NCBI RefSeq assembly: GCF_027922305.1
Contig: NZ_BSFK01000007.1
Coordinates: forward strand, 62,001 to 126,000
Direction of reading: 5' to 3'
Length of the DNA stretch: 64,000 bases
DNA from: Methylopila jiangsuensis
GTDB lineage: Bacteria; Pseudomonadota; Alphaproteobacteria; Rhizobiales; Methylopilaceae
Shown: one piece after another, positions 41,552 through 63,437 of the stretch
How the letters are laid out: each line of letters opens with the position of its first letter
How positions within the stretch are numbered: the stretch's first letter is position 1
Notes under the pieces: model-generated
Seen by the model: only the letters and a program-made list of their open reading frames with translations
The model's database searches: none
What the model was told of the DNA's origin: nothing
Position numbers and translations under genes: made by a program

Positions 41552-42403
41552 TCAGCGGTCCCGGTCGCGTCCGCCGCCACGGTCGCCGCCCCTGTCTCCG
41601 CCGCGTCCGCCGTGGTCGCCGCCGCCGCGCTCCATGCGGCCGCCGCCGCCCTCGAAGCGCGGACGGTCGCCGCCGCGGTCGCGATAGGCGCCGGGCGAAC
41701 CCCAGCCGGGGCCGCCATAGCCCATGTTGCGGTCGCGCTCCGGCCGGTCAGGCCGCTCCGGGCGATCGGGCCGTTCCGGACGGCCGGGCCTGTCGGGTCG
41801 ATCGGGGCGGTCGCCTCCCCAGCCGGGACGGTCGGGGCGGCCCGGACGATCCGGACGGCCGGGCCGATCGCCGCCCCAGCCGGGACGGCCCGGGCGGTCG
41901 CCGATCCAGCCCGGGCGATCCGGACGGCCGGGGCGGTCCCATCCGGGACGTCCAGGCCTGCCCCAATGGGGCGGGCGGGGGCGATGGGAGCCGTGCCAGC
42001 CGGGCCGGCCGGGACGCACGCCCCACCAGCGGCCGCCCCAGTAGTAATAGCCGTCCGAGAAGTACCACGGGCGGTCGTCCCAGTAGCCGCCGATCGACAG
42101 CCCGTAGGCCGGATCCTCGACCTCCTCCTCGATGATCACCCGCTCCCGCACGGCGCGGGACAGGTAGCTCGCGCTGGCGAAGCCGCTGCGGGCGCCGAGA
42201 TCGACCTCGCACCAGGCGCCGTCGCAGCCGATGACCTCGACGCTGCGGCCGGCGGGGATGGTCCCGATCACGGAGTAGGACGTGCCGGGGCCGGAGCGCA
42301 CGTTCAGATTGGTGGTGGCGGTGGCGGGCGCCGCGAGCGCCGCGCCCGCGGACAGGACCAGCGCGCCGGCGGCCGCCAGCGCCGTCCTCATGCGGACCTT
42401 CAT
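41552..42403 (-). CDS. Secreted SH3-domain protein with a GRPDRP-repeat tail
   Basis: About 283 aa. A signal peptide (RTALAAAGALVLSAGAALA) is followed by a bacterial SH3 domain (about 30-90) with TTNLNVRSGPGTSYSVIGTI and WCEVDLGARSGFASASYL. Residues 100-140 are rich in Tyr/Trp/Gly (GGYWDDRPWYFSDGYYYWGG). The rest is low complexity: tandem units of GRPDRP, GWGGDRP and ERPD, ending in Gly/Arg/Asp-rich sequence, presumably disordered and polycationic. Two starts are close (ATG at 42418 or 42403); the inner one is better spaced from GGAG. Likely a cell-envelope or peptidoglycan-interacting protein. Confidence 0.8.
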   Translation of the reverse strand: MKVRMRTALAAAGALVLSAGAALAAPATATTNLNVRSGPGTSYSVIGTIPAGRSVEVIGCDGAWCEVDLGARSGFASASYLSRAVRERVIIEEEVEDPAYGLSIGGYWDDRPWYFSDGYYYWGGRWWGVRPGRPGWHGSHRPRPPHWGRPGRPGWDRPGRPDRPGWIGDRPGRPGWGGDRPGRPDRPGRPDRPGWGGDRPDRPDRPGRPERPDRPERPDRPERDRNMGYGGPGWGSPGAYRDRGGDRPRFEGGGGRMERGGGDHGGRGGDRGGDRGGGRDRDR

Positions 42404-47950: not shown

Positions 47951-48006
47951 GTCCGGCGCAGGATCAGGGCGCTTGACGGCGAGCCCCGAGGCGACGTATC
48001 CAGCGG

Positions 48007-48058
48007 CCGGGCCACCCCTCCCCAACGAGGGGCTGCCATCTGAAAGGGTGGTTTTGAC
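48007..48058 (+). ncRNA. Structured serC leader (serC RNA motif candidate)
   Basis: Immediately before serC, CCCCT (48015-48019) can pair with AGGGG (48028-48032) to form a hairpin. Alternatively CCACCC (48012-48017) can pair with GGGTGG (48046-48051), which includes the serC ribosome site. The two pairings compete, so this looks like a translation switch. A conserved serC RNA motif of about this size is known just upstream of serC in alphaproteobacteria; position and size fit, but I cannot run a covariance search. Confidence 0.6.
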
Positions 48059-55310: not shown

Positions 55311-56102
55311 CTAAAGTGCGGTTTCGGGCGCGGCGCGCACGGGGATCGGGCGGTGGTCGGCGCCCACCGCCACCATCGTGAAGGCGGCCGCGCCCGCCCG
55401 CCGGCGCTCGCCGGTGAGCAGGTTCTCGGCGGTGAGCTCCACATCCACGGTCATGGACGAGCGGCCGACGCGCGCGATGCGGGGAGCGATCTCCATCACC
55501 TCGCCGGCGCCGATCTGGCTGACGAACTCGCTCCATGGCGTCGCCGCCAGCACCACCGCGGCGCGGGCGCGCCGGGAGGCTGCGACGAAGGCGGACTTGG
55601 CCATGGCCTCCAGCGCCCGGCCGCCGAACAGGCTGCCGTAGTGGCTGGTCTGCTCAGGAAACACCATTTCCACCATGCGCAGCTCAGACGTCCTGGCGAC
55701 GGCGGCGGGGGCGGGCATGGGCGGCAGCGCGCCGCCCCCGTCCTGGAGATCGCCGACCGCCACCATGTTGAACACGCTGCGTCCGCAGCGGCGGCGCTCG
55801 CCCGTGAGCGGCGTCTCCGCGAAGAAGTCCACCTCCACGCCGAGCGACCGCCGTCCGACGCGCACCAGCGCGCCGGTCAGCTCGATGATGTCGCCGAGCT
55901 TCGCCGGCCGGTCGAAGTCCACCCGTTCGCAGGAGGCGGTGACGAAGGCGCGGCGCCCGTGGCGCGAGGCGGCGATGAAGGCCACCTTGTCCATGTGCGC
56001 CAGCCCGACGCCGCCGAACAGCGTGCCGTGATGGTTGGTGTCTCCGGGGAACACGACGTCGACCAGCGTGGTCGATGTCGTGGCGGGCTGGCCCGCGGTC
56101 AT
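55311..56102 (-). CDS. Double-hotdog acyl-CoA thioesterase
   Basis: A 263-aa protein made of two hotdog domains in tandem. Each repeats the motif PxxTNHxGxLFGG: VVFPGDTNHHGTLFGGVGLA in the first and MVFPEQTSHYGSLFGGRALE in the second. Each is followed by AFIAASR/AFVAASR and the SVFNMVAVG/AAFTMVAVG strand, as in acyl-CoA hydrolases of the YciA/ACOT class. The ATG overlaps the metE stop (ATGA), so it is the second gene of a metE operon and inherits the cobalamin riboswitch control. The physiological link to methionine synthesis is not obvious. Confidence 0.88.
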   Translation of the reverse strand: MTAGQPATTSTTLVDVVFPGDTNHHGTLFGGVGLAHMDKVAFIAASRHGRRAFVTASCERVDFDRPAKLGDIIELTGALVRVGRRSLGVEVDFFAETPLTGERRRCGRSVFNMVAVGDLQDGGGALPPMPAPAAVARTSELRMVEMVFPEQTSHYGSLFGGRALEAMAKSAFVAASRRARAAVVLAATPWSEFVSQIGAGEVMEIAPRIARVGRSSMTVDVELTAENLLTGERRRAGAAAFTMVAVGADHRPIPVRAAPETAL

Positions 56103-58459
56103 TGCGCGGCTTCGGCCGAAGCCGCGCGGTCCCGCAGCCGTCGGGCGGCGGCGACCATGTTGACGAGCGCGGGCTTCACCTCCTCCCACTTGCGGGTCTT
56201 GAGGCCGCAATCGGGATTGACCCAGAGCTGCTCGGGCGCGATGCGCTCCCGCGCCCGTTCGAGCAGCTCCACCATCTCCTCCACGGACGGCACGCGCGGC
56301 GAGTGGATGTCGTAGACGCCGGGCCCGATCTCCGCCGGGTAGCGGTAGCCGACGAAGGCGTCCAGCAGCTCCATGCGCGAGCGGGAGGTCTCGATCGAGA
56401 TCACGTCCGCGTCCATGGCGCCGATGGAGGCGATGATGTCGTTGAACTCCGAGTAGCACATGTGGGTGTGGATCTGGGTTGCGTCCTCCACGCCCGACGA
56501 GCACAGCCGGAAGCTCGCCACCGCCCAGTCGAGATAGGTCTTCCACTCGCCCCGTCGCAGCGGCAGGCCTTCGCGCAGCGCCGCCTCGTCGATCTGGATC
56601 ACGGAGGCGCCGGCGGCCTCCAAGTCCTCCACTTCGTCGCGGATCGCGAGCGCGATCTGCCGGCAGGCGGTCGCGCGCGGGATGTCGTCGCGCACGAAGG
56701 ACCAGTTCAGGATGGTCACCGGCCCGGTGAGCATGCCTTTCATCGGCTTGCTGGTGAGCGACTGGCTGTAGGACCACCACTCCACCGTCATGGGCTTCGG
56801 CCGGGAGACGTCGCCGTAGAGGATCGGCGGGCGGACGCAGCGGGAGCCGTAGCTCTGCACCCAGCCGTGCCTGGTGAAGGCGAAGCCGGCGAGCTGCTCG
56901 CCGAAATACTGCACCATGTCGTTGCGCTCGAACTCGCCATGCGCCAGCACGTCGAGGCCGATCTCCTCCTGCCAGCGGATGGCGCTCGCGGTCACCTTGC
57001 GCAGGAAGTCCACATAGTCGGCGTCCGGGAGCGCGCCATTGGCGTTGGCGGCGCGGGCCTTGCGCACCTCCGGCGTCTGGGGGAACGAGCCGATGGTGGT
57101 GGTGGGGTAGGCCGGCAGGTCGAGACCCTTGCGCTGCTTCACGGCGCGCTCCGCGAAGGCGCTGCGGCGGCGCGTCATGTCCGGCGTGACGCGGGCGAGC
57201 CGCATCGCCACCTCGGGATCATGGATCTTGGGCGATTCCCGCCGCGCCCTGGCGGCGATGGAGGAGGAGGTCAGTTCCGGCTTCACGCTGTCGGCGCCGT
57301 GGGACAGGGCGCGGGCGAGGATCGACAGCTCCTCCATCTTCTGGACCGAGAAGGCGAGCCAGCGCTTCACGTCCGGGTCGAGCGCGTCCTCGGAGGCGAG
57401 ATCGACCGGGGTGTGCAGCAGCGAGCAGGACGGCGCGAGTTCGATCCGCTCGGCGCCGCGGGCCGCGACCACGGGCGCGAGCCGCTCCACGATCGGGGCG
57501 AGATCCGCGCGCCAGACGTTGCGGCCGTCGATGACGCCGAGCGACAGCGTGAGGTCCTTCGGCGCCCGCGCCACCGCGAGGTCGAGCTGGGTCGGGGCGC
57601 GCACGAGATCGAGGTGAAGCCCAGCCACCGGCAGCGCCAGCGCGGTTCCGAGATTGTCGCCGAGGCCGCCGAAATAGGTCGCCAGCATGATCTTCAGCGA
57701 CGGAACCTCGCGCGCGAAGCGGGCGTAGGCGTCCGCCAGCGCCTTGCGCGCCGCCGCGTCGAGGTCGAGGGCGAGGCACGGCTCGTCGAGCTGCGCCCAG
57801 TCGGCGCCATGGGCCGCGAGGCGCTTCAGGACCTCCACATAGACCGGAAGCAGGTCGTCGATCAGCGCGATCGGGTCGAAGCCCGCGTCCGCGCTCTTGC
57901 CGAGCCGCAGATAGGTCACCGGGCCGACCAGAACCGGCCGGGTCTTATGTCCCAGCGCCAGCGCCTCGCAGAACTCACTGACCACCTTGGTGGAGGACAG
58001 CGCGAACCGCTGGGCGCGGGAGAATTCGGGGACCATGTAATGGTAGTTGGTGTCGAACCACTTGGTCATCTCCAGCGCCGCCGCGCCGGCGTGGCCGCAG
58101 CCGCAAGCCCCATGGGCCTCCCCGCCCTGACGGCCGCGCGCCATGGCGAAATAGGCGTCGAGCGGGACCGGACCGCCGCTCCAGCCGTAGCGTTCGGGCA
58201 CGACCCCGGCCATGGCGCTGACGTCGAGCACATGGTCGTAAAGCGAGAAGTCGTTGGAGGGGATCACGGCGACGCCGCGGGCCTTCTGGCGCGCCCAGTT
58301 GGCGGCGCGCAGGCCCGCGGCGGCGGTTTCCAGCGTCGCGGCGTCGCTCTTGCCGGACCAGTAGGACTCGAGCGCGGTCTTCAGCTCGCGGCGCGGGCCG
58401 ATGCGCGGCGCGCCAAGCGTGGCGACGCGGATGATGTCAGTCTTCTCGGAATTGGACAT
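56099..58459 (-). CDS. metE: Cobalamin-independent methionine synthase
   Basis: Transfers a methyl group from 5-methyltetrahydropteroyl-triglutamate to homocysteine without B12. The 786-aa product starts MSNSEKTDIIRVATLGAPRI. The catalytic domain has the zinc-site segment QIHTHMCYSEFNDIIASIG (His and Cys ligands), the IDEAALREGLPLR block, and VNPDCGLKTRKW with the last Cys ligand. The ATG at 58459 lies just below an RBS-covering hairpin in the leader. A cobalamin riboswitch upstream predicts repression when B12 is present, implying a MetH elsewhere. Confidence 0.97.
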   Translation of the reverse strand: MSNSEKTDIIRVATLGAPRIGPRRELKTALESYWSGKSDAATLETAAAGLRAANWARQKARGVAVIPSNDFSLYDHVLDVSAMAGVVPERYGWSGGPVPLDAYFAMARGRQGGEAHGACGCGHAGAAALEMTKWFDTNYHYMVPEFSRAQRFALSSTKVVSEFCEALALGHKTRPVLVGPVTYLRLGKSADAGFDPIALIDDLLPVYVEVLKRLAAHGADWAQLDEPCLALDLDAAARKALADAYARFAREVPSLKIMLATYFGGLGDNLGTALALPVAGLHLDLVRAPTQLDLAVARAPKDLTLSLGVIDGRNVWRADLAPIVERLAPVVAARGAERIELAPSCSLLHTPVDLASEDALDPDVKRWLAFSVQKMEELSILARALSHGADSVKPELTSSSIAARARRESPKIHDPEVAMRLARVTPDMTRRRSAFAERAVKQRKGLDLPAYPTTTIGSFPQTPEVRKARAANANGALPDADYVDFLRKVTASAIRWQEEIGLDVLAHGEFERNDMVQYFGEQLAGFAFTRHGWVQSYGSRCVRPPILYGDVSRPKPMTVEWWSYSQSLTSKPMKGMLTGPVTILNWSFVRDDIPRATACRQIALAIRDEVEDLEAAGASVIQIDEAALREGLPLRRGEWKTYLDWAVASFRLCSSGVEDATQIHTHMCYSEFNDIIASIGAMDADVISIETSRSRMELLDAFVGYRYPAEIGPGVYDIHSPRVPSVEEMVELLERARERIAPEQLWVNPDCGLKTRKWEEVKPALVNMVAAARRLRDRAASAEAAQ

Positions 58460-58468
58460 TTCGGCAGA

Positions 58469-58487
58469 CCCCAATCTGGCGTTGGGG
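58469..58487 (-). promoter_or_regulatory. RBS-covering hairpin in the metE leader
   Basis: CCCCAA (minus strand, 58487-58482) pairs with TTGGGG (58474-58469) around a 7-nt loop, 9 bases before the metE ATG. The TTGGGG arm contains the only plausible ribosome site, so closing the hairpin should block translation. The same element occurs before nrdA. Confidence 0.6.
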
Positions 58488-58589
58488 GCAAAAGGCCGAG
58501 CGGACGCGTCGAACGGACCGCGGGCGGCTGCGCCGACGGTCGGGTTCCTGCGATCCACCGGGGCACCCCGCCCGTGGACGTTTCATGTC

Positions 58590-58775
58590 GTCGGGGCAGG
58601 TCTCCTGGCTCGCGGGTCGTCGCCTGTCGTCCGGTCTTCCCAAGGCTGTCCGGCCTCAGTGACAGGGTTGGACGAAAGGCTCGCCGCTCACAGTTGCGGG
58701 GGCAGCTCCGGCATTGCCCAAGGGCTCACCGGATTCCCTCTTAGCTCCGGCCAAACCCGGCCGGAGAACCTCGAC
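58590..58775 (-). ncRNA. Cobalamin riboswitch controlling metE
   Basis: On the minus strand the conserved aptamer pieces appear in order: AGAGGGAATCCGGTG, GGAGCTGCCCCCGCAACTGT, GTCACTG, GGGAAG, and the B12 box GCGAGCCAGGAGACCTGCC. P1 can form from GTCG at 58775-58772 and CGAC at the 3' end. Downstream, a TCCAC/GTGGA hairpin (58554-58579) and the RBS-covering hairpin form a likely expression platform. Confidence 0.95.
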
Positions 58776-58818
58776 AGCGTCATCCTAGGGCGGCGGCGGG
58801 ACGATCGTCAAGGGCAGT

Positions 58819-58834
58819 ATAAAGATATCTTTAT
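58819..58834. promoter_or_regulatory. Perfect 16-bp palindrome in the metE promoter region
   Basis: ATAAAGATATCTTTAT is its own reverse complement and stands about 44 bp upstream of the riboswitch 5' end, where the metE promoter must be. From memory it resembles the operator of SahR, the ArsR-family SAH-responsive regulator of methionine genes. It could therefore be a second control on metE. Confidence 0.55.
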
Positions 58835-58943
58835 TTCAGCATATGGAGAGCGTTATGGGTCGGCCGCAACGGCGGCGCCCATCTGTGGACAATATCGACC
58901 CCAGATGTTGACCGAAGCAGGGTCTCCGCCACAACATATGGGC

Positions 58944-59140
58944 GTCGAGGTTCTTCGAGGGGCGCATGCGCCTCACGGAGCTAAGAGGGAATCCGGTGCG
59001 CCGCGTCAGCGGCCAGTCCGGAGCTGCCCCCGCAACTGTGAGCGGCGAGCGTCTCGTCCATCCTGCGCCACTGAAGCCGTCACGCTTCGGGAAGGCCGGA
59101 CGAAACGCCGTGACCCGCGAGCCAGGAGACCTGCCCCGAC
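58944..59140 (+). ncRNA. Cobalamin riboswitch controlling nrdAB
   Basis: The plus strand carries AGAGGGAATCCGGTG, GGAGCTGCCCCCGCAACTGT, GCCACTG, GGGAAG and the B12 box GCGAGCCAGGAGACCTGCC, almost identical to the metE riboswitch. P1 pairs GTCG (58944-58947) with CGAC (59137-59140). A TCCAC/GTGGA hairpin follows at 59152-59176. A promoter with TTGACC at 58908-58913 is possible. Predicts repression of nrdAB when B12 is available. Confidence 0.95.
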
Positions 59141-59249
59141 GCGATGAAACGTCCACGGGCGGGGTGTCCCGGTGGAGCGCTTGGGTTGAAGCCTGCGCCA
59201 TCCCCCCGCGCACGGCTCGTGGCCCTTCCGCATCCGCTCGGCCTTTTGC

Positions 59250-59268
59250 CCCCAACGCGATCTTGGGG
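59250..59268 (+). promoter_or_regulatory. RBS-covering hairpin in the nrdA leader
   Basis: CCCCAA (59250-59255) pairs with TTGGGG (59263-59268) around a 7-nt loop, 9 bases before the ATG at 59278. It is the same element as in the metE leader and likely the output switch of the riboswitch. Confidence 0.6.
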
Positions 59269-59277
59269 TCCAAGCCG

Positions 59278-62141
59278 ATGTCTCTTTCGCAAGCTTCCGT
59301 ATCGCCGGCCGTGACCTCCCGCCCGTCGCCGCAGGCGCCCGAGGCGGCGGCGCGGGCGACGCCCGCCTTCCGCGTCATACGGCGCAACGGATCGGTGTCC
59401 GATTTCGACGCGGCCAAGATCGTGGTCGCCATGACCAAGGCCTTCCTCGCGGTCGAGGGCGGCGGCGCCGCGGCCTCCCGCCGGGTGCATGAAACGGTGG
59501 AGGAGCTTGCGGGCGAGGTGGTCGCCGCGCTGACCCGCCGGGCGGATTTCGAGCGTGCGATCCACATCGAGGACGTGCAGGACCAGGTGGAGCTGGCGCT
59601 GATGCGCGGCGGCCACCACAAGGTCGCCCGCGCCTATGTGCTCTACCGCGAGGCCCGCGCGGCCGAGCGGCGCAAGGAGGCGCAGACCGCGCCCGTGGCC
59701 CCGCCCGCGATCCATGTGCGCAGGGCCGACGGCTCGCTCGCCGAGCTCGACGAGACGCGGCTCGCGCTCGTCATCCGCGAGGCCTGCGCCGGACTGGACG
59801 GGACAGATCCCGAGGCGGTGCTGACCGAGGCCCGCCGCAATCTTTATGACGGGGTGTCGGAGGGCGAACTCGCCCAGGCCCCGGTGATGGCGGCGCGGGC
59901 GCTGGTGGAGACCGAGCCGAACTACGCTTTCGTCTCCGCGCGCCTGCTGCTCGACGCGCTGCGCGCCGAGGCGCTGACCGCGGTGTTCGGCGCGCCGACC
60001 CGCGCCACCAGGGCGAGATGGCGGAGACCTACCGCGATTATTTCCCGGCCTTCGTGCAGGCGGGCGTCGAGGCGGAGCTGATCGACCCGGAGCTCGCCCG
60101 CTTCGACCTCCACGCGCTCGCTTCGGCGCTCAGGCCCGAACGCGACCTGAACTTCCAGTTCCTCGGCCTGCAGACGCTCTATGACCGCTATTTCCTGCAC
60201 GCCGGGCCAAGGCGCATCGAACTCCCCCAGGCCTTCTTCATGCGCGTGGCCATGGGGCTTTCGCTCCGGGAGATCGACCGCGAGGCCCGGGCGATCGAAT
60301 TCTATGACCTGCTGTCCAGCTTCGATTTCATGGCCTCGACCCCGACGCTGTTCAATTCCGGCACGACGCGGCCGCAGCTCTCTTCCTGCTTCCTCACCAC
60401 CGTGGCCGATGATCTGGACGGCATCTTCAAGGCGGTGAAGGACAACGCTTTGCTGGCGAAATATTCTGGCGGCCTCGGCAACGACTGGACGCCGGTGCGC
60501 GGCCTCGGCGCGCACATCAAGGGCACCAACGGCGAGAGCCAGGGCGTGGTGCCGTTCCTGAAGGTGGCGAACGACACCGCGATCGCCGTCAACCAGGGCG
60601 GCAAGCGCAAGGGCGCGGTCTGCGCCTATCTGGAGACCTGGCACGTGGATCTCGAGGAGTTCCTCGACCTGCGCAAGAACACCGGCGACGACCGCCGCCG
60701 CACCCACGACATGAACACCGCGAACTGGATCCCGGACCTGTTCATGGAGCGGGTCGAGGCGGACGGGGCGTGGACGCTGTTCTCGCCCGACGAGACTCCG
60801 GACCTGCACGACCTCTACGGCCCCGCCTTCAAGGCGGCCTACGAGGGCTATGAGGCGAGGGCCGCGCGCGGCGAACTCAGGGTGTTCCGCACCCTCCGCG
60901 CGGTCGATCTGTGGCGGCGCATGCTGACCATGCTGTTCGAGACCGGGCATCCCTGGATCACCTTCAAGGATCCCTGCAACATCCGCTCGCCCCAGCGCCA
61001 TGTGGGCGTGGTGCATTCCTCGAACCTCTGCACCGAGATCACGCTCAACACCTCGGCCGACGAGGTGGCGGTGTGCAACCTCGGCTCCGTCAACCTCGCG
61101 CGGCATGTGACGGGTGAGGGGCTCGACCGGGCGCGGCTCGCCCGCACGGTGAAGACCGCCATGCGGATGCTCGACAACGTGGTCGACATCAACTTCTACA
61201 CCATCCCCGAGGCCCGCCGCTCCAACCTGCGCCACCGGCCGGTGGGGCTCGGGATCATGGGCTTTCAGGATGCGCTGCAGACGCTGCGGCTGCCTTACGC
61301 CTCCGAACAGGCCGTCCGCTTCGCCGACGAGAGCATGGAGGCCGTGAGCTTCGAGGCGATCTCGGCGTCCGTCGACCTCGCCGCCGAGCGCGGCCGCTAT
61401 CCGAGCTTCGAGGGCTCGCTCTGGTCGCAGGGCGTTCTGCCGATCGACAGTCTCGACCTGCTGGCGGAGGCGCGGGGAGGGTCGGCGTTCGACCGGTCCG
61501 CGACGCTCGGCTGGGCGTCCTTGCGCGAGCGCGTGAGAAGCGTCGGCATGCGCAACTCGAACTGCATGGCGATCGCTCCGACCGCCACGATCTCCAACAT
61601 CTGCGGCGTGTCGCAGTCGATCGAGCCCGCCTACCAGAACCTCTACGTGAAATCGAACATGTCCGGCGACTTCACGGTGGTGAACGCCGGCCTCGCCCGC
61701 GACCTGAAAGCCCGCGGGCTGTGGGATGAGGTGATGGTCTCGGACCTGAAATATTTCGACGGCGCGCTGGCCCTGATCGACCGCGTGCCGGGCGACCTCA
61801 AGGCGCTCTACGCCACCGCCTTCGAGATCGACGCCAGATGGCTGATCGAGGCGGCCGCGCGCCGCCAGAAATGGATCGACCAGGCCCAGTCGCTCAACCT
61901 CTACATCGCCGCGCCTTCGGGCCGCGCGCTGGACGCGCTCTACCGTTCGGCGTGGAAGGCGGGGCTCAAGACCACCTATTACCTGCGCTCGCGCTCCGCG
62001 AGCCATGTGGAGAAATCCACGCTGAAGGGCGTGGACGGCAAGCTCAACGCCGTCTCCGCCACGCTTTCGGCCCAGCCGATCGTGGTGGGCGAGGGCGCGG
62101 TCTGCGCCATGGACGATCCGACCTGCGAGGCCTGCCAGTAA
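59278..62141 (+). pseudogene. nrdA: Ribonucleoside-diphosphate reductase alpha subunit, whole gene with a one-base frameshift
   Basis: Class I ribonucleotide reductase large subunit, reducing NDPs to dNDPs. From the ATG at 59278 the frame encodes residues 1-244: an ATP-cone (FRVIRRNGSVSDFDAAKIVV to about residue 120), then a second cone-like region (IHVRRADGSLAELDETRLAL) and [20 protein letters not shown]. At about 60007-60010 the frame shifts. Inserting one C after ACC (60007-60009) would restore [17 protein letters not shown] and give a 954-aa protein, the normal size. As written, the first frame ends at 60081 after 23 nonsense residues. This could be a true mutation, a sequencing error, or a split gene. 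Confidence 0.85.
60018..62141 (+). CDS. nrdA: NrdA catalytic domain, intact second frame
   Basis: A 707-aa frame holding the complete reductase barrel. Active-site cysteines are in [15 protein letters not shown] and [14 protein letters not shown] (with Glu two residues on). The substrate loop [18 protein letters not shown] and the Tyr pair region near the end are present, and the shuttle cysteines lie in the C-terminal [13 protein letters not shown]. It has its own ATG at 60018, preceded by GGGCGAG, and overlaps the first frame by 64 bp. Independent translation would make an ATP-cone-less alpha subunit lacking overall activity regulation. nrdB follows 168 bp downstream. Confidence 0.85.
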
Positions 62142-62252: not shown

Positions 62253-62309
62253 ATGACGGCGTTTCGTTCCGCGAGCGTTGCCGCCGCTTGAAACAGAATG
62301 AGGCCTCCC

Positions 62310-63437
62310 GTGCTCGACTGGTCCGAACCCGCCTCTCCGAAATCGGCCGCCCTGCTCCCCGCCGATCCGGCCTCCTCCGGTCCGGTCCAGAGCGGCCTCG
62401 GCGTCATCGACCGCTCCGGCGGCCGCGTCACCGTGGACGAGAAGCGGCTCATCAACTGCCGCGCCGACGTCAACCAGCTTCTGCCGCTCAAATACCGCTG
62501 GGCCTGGGAGAAGTACCTCGCCGCCTGCAACAACCACTGGATGCCGACGGAAGTGTCCATGCAGGCCGACATCGCGTTGTGGAAGTCCAGCGACGGCCTC
62601 ACCGATGACGAGCGGCGCATGGTCAAGCGCAATCTCGGCTTCTTCGCCGCATCGGAGAGTCTTGTCGCGAACAACATCGTGCTGGCGATCTACCGTCACC
62701 TCACCAATCCCGAGTGCCGGCAATATCTGCTGCGGCAGGCCTTCGAGGAGGCCGTCCACACCCACACCTTCCAGTATGTGGTGGAGAGCCTCGGCCTGGA
62801 CGAAGGCGAACTGTTCAACATGTATCGCGAGGCGCCGTCGATCACCGACAAGGCCGCCTGGGCGCTGAACCACACCCGCCATCTCGACGACCCCGATTTC
62901 CGCACCGGCACGCCGGCCGCCGACGGCGCCTTCCTGAAGGACCTGATCGCCTTCTACGTGGTGTTCGAAGGCATGTGGTTCTACACCGGCTTCGCGCAGA
63001 TCCTGTCGCTCGGCCGCCGCAACAAGATGGTCGGCATCGCCGAGCAGTATCAGTACATCCTGCGCGACGAGAGCCTGCACCTGAACTTCGGCGTCGACGT
63101 CATCAATCAGATCAAGGCGGAGAGCCCGCATCTGTGGACCTCCGCCTTCCAGGCGGAAGCGCTCGCCATGATCCGGGAGGCGGCGGAGCTGGAGGCGGCC
63201 TATGGCCGCGACGTGCTGCCGCGCGGCCTGCTGGGGCTGAACGCCGCGGCCTGCGAGCGGTACATGCGCTTTATCGCCAACCGCCGCTGCGCCCAGCTCG
63301 GCCTGCCTTGGGCCTTCGAGGCCACGGAAAATCCCTTCCCGTGGATGTCGGAGGCTATGGACCTGAAGAAGGAGAAGAACTTCTTCGAGACCCGCGTCAT
63401 CGAATATCAGAACGGCGGGGCTCTCGCCTGGGACTGA
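62310..63437 (+). CDS. nrdB: Ribonucleotide reductase beta subunit, class Ic (Mn/Fe) type
   Basis: Radical-generating small subunit, 375 aa. Metal ligands in order are Glu116 ([10 protein letters not shown]), Glu147 and His150 ([10 protein letters not shown]), Glu220 (FEGMWFY), and Glu254 and His257 (RDESLHLNF). The residue four after the first His, where class Ia enzymes have the radical Tyr, is Phe154, and the first ligand is Glu rather than Asp. Both changes, and all spacings, match the Chlamydia trachomatis class Ic enzyme, which uses a Mn(IV)/Fe(III) cofactor. The GTG at 62310 has GAGG 6 bases upstream and gives MLDW at the N-terminus; an ATG at 62298 is the alternative. Confidence 0.93.

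What the first reader, a model, noticed from the sequence alone, without database searches (positions are those of the whole stretch)
58460..59277. Head-to-head pair of near-identical cobalamin riboswitches driving metE and nrdAB
Both strands carry a full B12 aptamer (58590-58775 minus, 58944-59140 plus). The similarity goes past the aptamer: both leaders contain a block starting ATGAAACGTCCACGGGCGGG, a TCCAC/GTGGA hairpin, CCGCTCGGCCTTTTGCCCCC, and a CCCCAA/TTGGGG hairpin covering the ribosome site. This looks like one regulatory cassette of about 320 bp duplicated in inverted orientation, so that two B12-independent enzymes are shut off together when B12 is present. B12 riboswitches on metE are common. 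A shared, duplicated expression platform between metE and a ribonucleotide reductase is, to my knowledge, not a described arrangement.
Basis: partly seen in the sequence, partly recalled or inferred. Interest (0 to 1): 0.8.

Follow-up and report, generated by a model that had tools for sequence, protein, structure and literature searches.

The report
Paired B12 riboswitches for metE, nrdAB
Two related vitamin-B12-sensing RNA switches sit back to back and probably turn off two B12-free backup enzymes (one for methionine, one for DNA building blocks) when B12 is available; each part is a known kind, and the same arrangement recurs in related bacteria, so it is a tidy but not radical finding.

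Summary
Two full-length cobalamin riboswitches lie head to head (58578-58788 minus, 128 bits; 58931-59152 plus, 114.8 bits) before metE and nrdAB. Their expression platforms are homologous (28.8 SD above shuffles) and unlike the genome's three other cobalamin-riboswitch platforms. Both end in a CCCCAA/TTGGGG hairpin over the presumed ribosome site, so control is probably translational.

The leaders are not near-identical (79% aptamer, 84% platform) and share no excess of rare bases, so a recent local duplication is not supported. The same platform precedes metE, class Ia nrdA and class III nrdD across the order. All genus-mates searched lack both genes. metH and nrdJ are present.

New here: each promoter has its own predicted operator, a SahR-type palindrome for metE (only three sites in the genome) and an NrdR box pair for nrdA. 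A shared B12 veto on RNA probably overlies separate DNA controls. nrdA is frameshifted in this assembly. I found no description of the arrangement, but the library holds few subscription papers. Nothing was tested experimentally.

The parts
56099..58459 (-). metE, cobalamin-independent methionine synthase, 786 aa
   Evidence: PF01717 515 bits, PF08267 396 bits; TIGR01371 1097 bits, cut-off 930
58469..58487 (-). hairpin CCCCAA-CGCCAGA-TTGGGG; its 3' arm is the presumed Shine-Dalgarno site, 9 nt before the metE ATG
   Evidence: sequence; hairpin of this kind in 42 leaders; modest co-variation
58554..58578 (-). P13/L13 hairpin of the metE leader (TCCACGGGCGGGGTGCCCCGGTGGA); GCGGGG of the loop is complementary to the conserved CCCCGC loop of the aptamer (kissing loop)
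   Evidence: sequence; L5-L13 kissing loop as in PMC9600662; no co-variation in the stem
58578..58788 (-). cobalamin aptamer of the metE leader
   Evidence: RF00174, 128 bits
58782..58811 (-). sigma-70-like promoter of metE, TTGACG-18-TAGGAT
   Evidence: consensus scan, 1 found against 0.1 expected
58819..58834 (.). palindrome ATAAAGATATCTTTAT, predicted SahR-type operator next to the metE -35 box
   Evidence: 3 sites in the 3.7-Mb genome, 0 for the control: metE, sahR-metF-metH, ahcY; same motif upstream of other metE riboswitches
58898..58913 (+). predicted NrdR box 1 (ACCCCAGATGTTGACC), holds the presumed nrdA -35 TTGACC
   Evidence: box pair at 31 nt, z 4.5 against shuffles; NrdR encoded in the genome
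58929..58944 (+). predicted NrdR box 2 (CCACAACATATGGGCG)
   Evidence: as box 1; spacer of 15 bp lies within the 14-17 bp reported for NrdR (PMC12051234)
58931..59152 (+). cobalamin aptamer of the nrdA leader
   Evidence: RF00174, 114.8 bits
59152..59176 (+). P13/L13 hairpin of the nrdA leader (TCCACGGGCGGGGTGTCCCGGTGGA)
   Evidence: sequence; homologous to the metE copy
59250..59268 (+). hairpin CCCCAA-CGCGATC-TTGGGG over the presumed Shine-Dalgarno site, 9 nt before the nrdA ATG
59278..62141 (+). nrdA, class Ia ribonucleotide reductase large subunit; split over two frames in this assembly (59278-60081 and 60018-62141)
   Evidence: PRK07207: N part 22-241, C part 251-965 of 965; frames; G013 relative is in one frame
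62298..63437 (+). nrdB, class Ia small subunit, 379 aa
   Evidence: PF00268 301 bits; PRK07209 654 bits

Best explanation
The 820-bp intergenic region is a divergent control region for two B12-independent isozymes. Each promoter makes an mRNA whose leader is a cobalamin riboswitch of the usual P1-P6 type (probably adenosylcobalamin-binding) with an order-wide 'isozyme' expression platform. When B12 is bound, the L13 loop (GCGGGG) kisses the conserved CCCCGC loop of the aptamer. The terminal hairpin CCCCAA/TTGGGG then holds the Shine-Dalgarno site, and translation of metE or nrdAB is blocked. MetH and NrdJ do the work instead. When B12 is scarce both backups are made. Upstream of this common RNA-level veto each promoter has its own operator: a SahR-type site for metE (S-adenosylhomocysteine signal) and an NrdR box pair for nrdA (nucleotide signal). 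The two leaders descend from one ancestral platform, copied long before this species arose. Shown by computation: aptamers, gene identities, platform homology, hairpins, operator-like motifs, the B12-dependent partner enzymes, recurrence in relatives. Inferred: repression by B12, the translational mechanism, which TF binds, the age of the duplication.
For: Two full RF00174 hits. No terminator-like site on either strand, while a hairpin over a G-rich site before the start codon was found in all 42 metE/nrdA/nrdD leaders searched, with pairing better than when arms are swapped between leaders (31 of 2000 permutations reach it; 12 of 2000 in a reduced set). Platform homology z 28.8; scores against the genome's own other cobalamin platforms are 12-16, i.e. 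chance level. metH as sahR-metF-metH operon and nrdJ are present. Head-to-head metE/nrdA pairs in L156, L164, L079, L083. The SahR-type palindrome occurs at 3 places in the genome: metE, an ArsR-methyltransferase gene ahead of metF-metH, and ahcY. NrdR box pair z 4.5, nrdR gene present. Isozymes of B12-dependent enzymes are an established target class of this riboswitch (PMC3766115).
Against: Thermodynamic folding does not clearly show a switch: the metE sequestering hairpin is predicted formed with or without L13 held open; only nrdA shows a rise, 0.13 to 0.67. P13 has no co-variation support. nrdA is frameshifted in this assembly, so the NrdAB backup may not work here. The NrdR consensus was recalled, and box pairs reach z>2 in only 16 of 34 nrd leaders (2 of 12 metE leaders). 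No expression data.
Confidence: 0.83

Rival explanations
1. A recent local duplication: one roughly 320-bp cassette was copied in inverted orientation in this lineage, or the two copies are kept alike by gene conversion.
For: The two platforms are each other's best match among 60 leaders (60, against next best 51 and 57), and the pair forms a weak clade (77/84).
Against: Only 7 rare shared bases, against 5.1 +/- 2.7 for all metE x nrdA pairs. The Methylovirgula nrdA leader is as close (0.739 and 0.737, against 0.738 within the pair). Pairs in other genomes are no closer than orthologues. One clade of all metE leaders is not rejected (p 0.137).
Confidence: 0.13
2. The platform works by transcription control (Rho-dependent or intrinsic termination) rather than by hiding the ribosome site.
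For: The Streptomyces nrdABS riboswitch is reported to act on transcription (Borovok 2006, as cited in PMC4991794). Rho sites cannot be excluded by sequence.
Against: No terminator-like stem with a T run in the region. The last hairpin holds the presumed Shine-Dalgarno site at 9 nt from both start codons.
Confidence: 0.15
3. The nrdAB arm is decaying: nrdA is a frameshifted pseudogene and its riboswitch is a relic.
For: nrdA is split over two frames in the assembly. Genus-mates live with nrdJ alone.
Against: The rest of nrdA and nrdB are intact and 80-88% identical to relatives. The leader keeps aptamer, L13 and hairpin. A one-base assembly error would explain the split.
Confidence: 0.2

Closest known systems
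Cobalamin riboswitch RF00174 (class I) in front of metE
   Same: Same aptamer family, same target, same expected logic (B12 present, MetE off).
   Different: Here it is paired head to head with a homologous leader for nrdAB and shares an order-specific platform.
B12 riboswitch of Streptomyces nrdABS (Borovok et al. 2006, cited in PMC4991794)
   Same: Same riboswitch family on a class Ia ribonucleotide reductase in a genome with nrdJ.
   Different: Reported to act on transcription; the platform here looks translational, and nrdAB is paired with metE.
Cobalamin regulons of Proteobacteria, category 'isozymes of B12-dependent enzymes' (PMC3766115)
   Same: metE and nrd fall into this described functional category.
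   Different: The main text does not mention nrd or metE, nor a paired arrangement or a shared platform (supplements not readable here).
SahR regulon of Proteobacteria (PMC4239095)
   Same: 20-bp palindromic operator; core targets of the SAM cycle (ahcY, metF, metH); metE named as a taxon-specific member.
   Different: The combination with a B12 riboswitch on the same transcript is not mentioned in the passages read.
Tandem riboswitches (PMC9481103, seen as title and abstract only)
   Same: Two riboswitches close together.
   Different: Tandem ones act on one transcript; these are divergent and act on two.

Membership tests
Cobalamin riboswitch, RF00174 | Covariance-model match above the gathering score over the full aptamer | tested here: met
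   128 and 114.8 bits against 31.5, model positions 1-189 both
Cobalamin riboswitch, RF00174 | L5-L13 kissing loop between aptamer and expression platform | tested here: inconclusive
   CCCCGC in the aptamer loop and GCGGGG in L13 are complementary in both leaders, but both are invariant, so co-variation says nothing
Cobalamin riboswitch, RF00174 | Binds a cobalamin and changes expression | not testable with these tools
   needs binding assay or reporter
Translational (ribosome-site sequestering) riboswitch | Hairpin covering the Shine-Dalgarno site, no intrinsic terminator | tested here: met
   hairpin in all 42 leaders searched, no terminator-like site, modest co-variation
Translational (ribosome-site sequestering) riboswitch | Alternative fold that frees the site without ligand | tested here: inconclusive
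   folding with and without L13 held open changes nrdA but not metE
B12-riboswitch-controlled isozyme pair | B12-dependent counterparts present in the genome | tested here: met
   metH, two ORFs, 1736.8 bits together; nrdJ 562 bits with its neighbouring match
SahR regulon | SahR-like ArsR regulator and palindromic sites at SAM-cycle genes | tested here: met
   ArsR HTH plus methyltransferase gene and ahcY carry two of three genome sites; the published logo itself could not be read
NrdR regulon | nrdR gene and two NrdR boxes in helical phase at the promoter | tested here: met
   nrdR 170 bits; boxes 31 nt apart, z 4.5; consensus recalled from memory

The most novel reading that the evidence does not exclude
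Hyphomicrobiales carry a dedicated 'isozyme' cobalamin-riboswitch platform, distinct from the btuB and cbtA-type platforms of the same genomes, that was copied among metE, nrdA and nrdD so that all B12-independent backups share one RNA switch. In several lineages two copies were fixed head to head, with pathway-specific operators (SahR, NrdR) between them. A more speculative extra, with only sequence opportunity for it: the 23-33-nt inverted exact repeats could allow inversion of the promoter spacer, swapping which operator serves which gene; no swapped state was seen.
Probability: 0.5. Interest if true: 0.45.

Novelty: new member of a known kind. Interest (0 to 1): 0.33.

Why it matters
If right, one metabolite controls two pathways through copies of one RNA switch, while each pathway keeps its own DNA-level signal. 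That makes it a compact natural case for asking how riboswitch platforms spread to new genes: they can be copied whole, aptamer and platform together, and stay recognisable across an order. The pairs and tandems in Bradyrhizobium, Azorhizobium and others give ready material to test duplication against gene conversion. For the organism it is practical: B12 in the medium should silence MetE and NrdAB at once.

Tried and rejected
Recent inverted duplication: tested by shared rare bases, leader tree and AU test; not supported. Empty-site test for horizontal arrival: the glutamine amidotransferase gene to the right of nrdB is kept in genus-mates, but nothing else of the window's last 20 kb aligns to the 7 genus-mate stretches fetched around it, so no empty site could be shown. 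L13 as a competitor of the 5' arm of the sequestering hairpin: seen in few leaders, mean pairing 0.14; left as a guess. P13 co-variation: none. Close head-to-head riboswitch pairs in G048 and G060 precede other genes, not metE/nrdAB. First NrdA query failed because of the frameshift. Two older papers are not held; supplements could not be read.

Full report
Observation. The Rfam cobalamin model matches both strands over its full length: 58578-58788 minus (128 bits) and 58931-59152 plus (114.8 bits), cut-off 31.5. The minus leader ends at the metE start (ATG 58459), the plus leader at the nrdA start (ATG 59278), with nrdB following. The two leaders share exact runs of 33, 30, 26, 23 and 23 nt in inverted orientation. 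Outside the aptamer the two platforms score 60 in a local alignment, against a mean of 10.6, SD 1.7, maximum 18 for 1000 dinucleotide shuffles. Identity is 79% (aptamer) and 84% (platform) of aligned bases, so 'near-identical' overstates it.

Own genome. The genome (3.7 Mb, 18 contigs) holds five cobalamin riboswitches. The other three precede two TonB-receptor-like genes and a cobalt-transporter-like pair (named from sequence, not by a family search). Their platforms score 12-16 against the metE and nrdA platforms, which is chance level, although the L13 motif GGCGGGGTG recurs in the two receptor leaders. So metE and nrdA share a platform type that the other cobalamin-controlled genes do not. 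MetH is present as two ORFs in an operon with an ArsR-methyltransferase regulator and metF. NrdJ is present.

Relatives. Of 199 genomes of the order, 17 besides this one carry a NrdA of about 79-85% identity. Sixteen of those 17 have a B12 box upstream of nrdA; the exception is L171. The closest named NrdA loci are from Hyphomicrobiales, which is where this genome most likely belongs. Riboswitches of the same platform type precede metE, class Ia nrdA and class III nrdD there. Close head-to-head metE/nrdAB pairs (501-641 nt between boxes) occur in Azorhizobium oxalatiphilum (L079), Bradyrhizobium cenepequi (L083), G081 (L156) and G205 (L164). The two genes are further apart but still head to head in G013, G183 and a Bradyrhizobium MAG (L078), and in tandem in G209 and G163. 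G047 has metE head to head with nrdD.

Patchy genes. metE has no match in any of 12 genus-mates. Six genus-mates searched with NrdA have only weak matches, and 11 show only NrdJ with the class II model. The thioesterase gene next to metE has no close match in the nine genus-mates searched. The unit was either gained here or lost in its relatives. I could not find an empty site.

History of the pair. In the best tree the two leaders are sisters with weak support, 77/84. Holding all metE leaders as one clade is not rejected, p 0.137. The pair shares 7 rare bases, near the mean of 5.1 +/- 2.7 for all metE x nrdA pairs. The Azorhizobium pair shares 16, the highest of 336 pairs. Recent duplication or conversion is therefore not supported here; an old duplication is the simplest reading.

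Mechanism. No terminator-like site was found. Both leaders end in CCCCAA-loop-TTGGGG with the G run 9 nt before ATG, and a comparable hairpin was found in all 42 leaders searched, with varying arms. That search picks the best stem in each sequence, so the count alone is weak evidence. Swapping 5' arms between leaders lowers pairing (31 of 2000 permutations, 12 of 2000 in a reduced set, reach the observed value), which is modest support. The conserved aptamer loop (CCCCGC) and L13 (GCGGGG) are complementary, as in the known L5-L13 kissing loop (PMC9600662). Folding with L13 held open raises the nrdA hairpin from 0.13 to 0.67 but the metE hairpin is always predicted formed, so the switching step is inferred, not shown.

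DNA-level control. The 140-bp spacer holds a perfect palindrome, ATAAAGATATCTTTAT (58819-58834), beside the metE -35 box. With up to two mismatches it occurs at three places in the genome and nowhere for the reversed control: metE, the ArsR-methyltransferase gene ahead of metF-metH, and ahcY. The same motif lies upstream of several other metE riboswitches. This fits the SahR regulon (PMC4239095). On the nrdA side a pair of NrdR-like boxes lies 31 nt apart (58898, 58929; z 4.5) and nrdR is present. The 15-bp spacer fits the reported 14-17 bp (PMC12051234).

Known or new. B12 control of nrdAB by riboswitch is published (Borovok 2006, cited in PMC4991794), and isozymes are a recognised target class (PMC3766115). 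Ten literature searches gave no description of a head-to-head metE/nrdAB pair or of a shared isozyme platform, but the library lacks most subscription papers, including the 2003 surveys. I file it as a new member of a known kind with an unusual, recurrent arrangement.

Caveat. nrdA is split over two frames at about 60005-60081. A one-base assembly error or a real frameshift would both explain it.

Noticed in passing
window 59990-60081: nrdA is split over two frames; the N-terminal ATP-cone part and the catalytic part each match the same 965-aa model (22-241 and 251-965). Assembly error or real frameshift.
   Followed up: partly
window 58819-58834; G000:C5:97700; G000:C7:173503: Three genome-wide SahR-type palindromes: metE, an ArsR-methyltransferase gene ahead of metF-metH, and ahcY.
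   Followed up: yes
L185 790-4554 (minus): MetH is encoded as two ORFs (352 and 892 aa), as in most genus-mates searched.
   Followed up: partly
L159 and L160, metE leaders: A 27-aa ORF (MFKLQTA...RRRMRCGVP) stands between the riboswitch hairpin and metE in both genomes; the hairpin sits on this ORF's start, not on metE's. Possible leader peptide.
   Followed up: no
L035 (G048) and L036 (G060): Two other close head-to-head cobalamin riboswitch pairs, in front of cobalt-transport-like or other genes, not metE/nrdAB.
   Followed up: partly
L073 8092-10146; L167 4506-6527; L077 4001-6049: Class III nrdD genes under cobalamin riboswitches with the same platform type.
   Followed up: partly
L079 6493 and 7134: The Azorhizobium oxalatiphilum metE and nrdA leaders share 16 rare bases, the most of 336 pairs: a candidate for gene conversion or a later duplication.
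   Followed up: no
window 48005-48056 plus: serC leader (RF00517), 59.3 bits against a cut-off of 35.
   Followed up: no
window 41847-41893 plus: Weak guanidine-II riboswitch match, 32.6 bits against a cut-off of 32.
   Followed up: no
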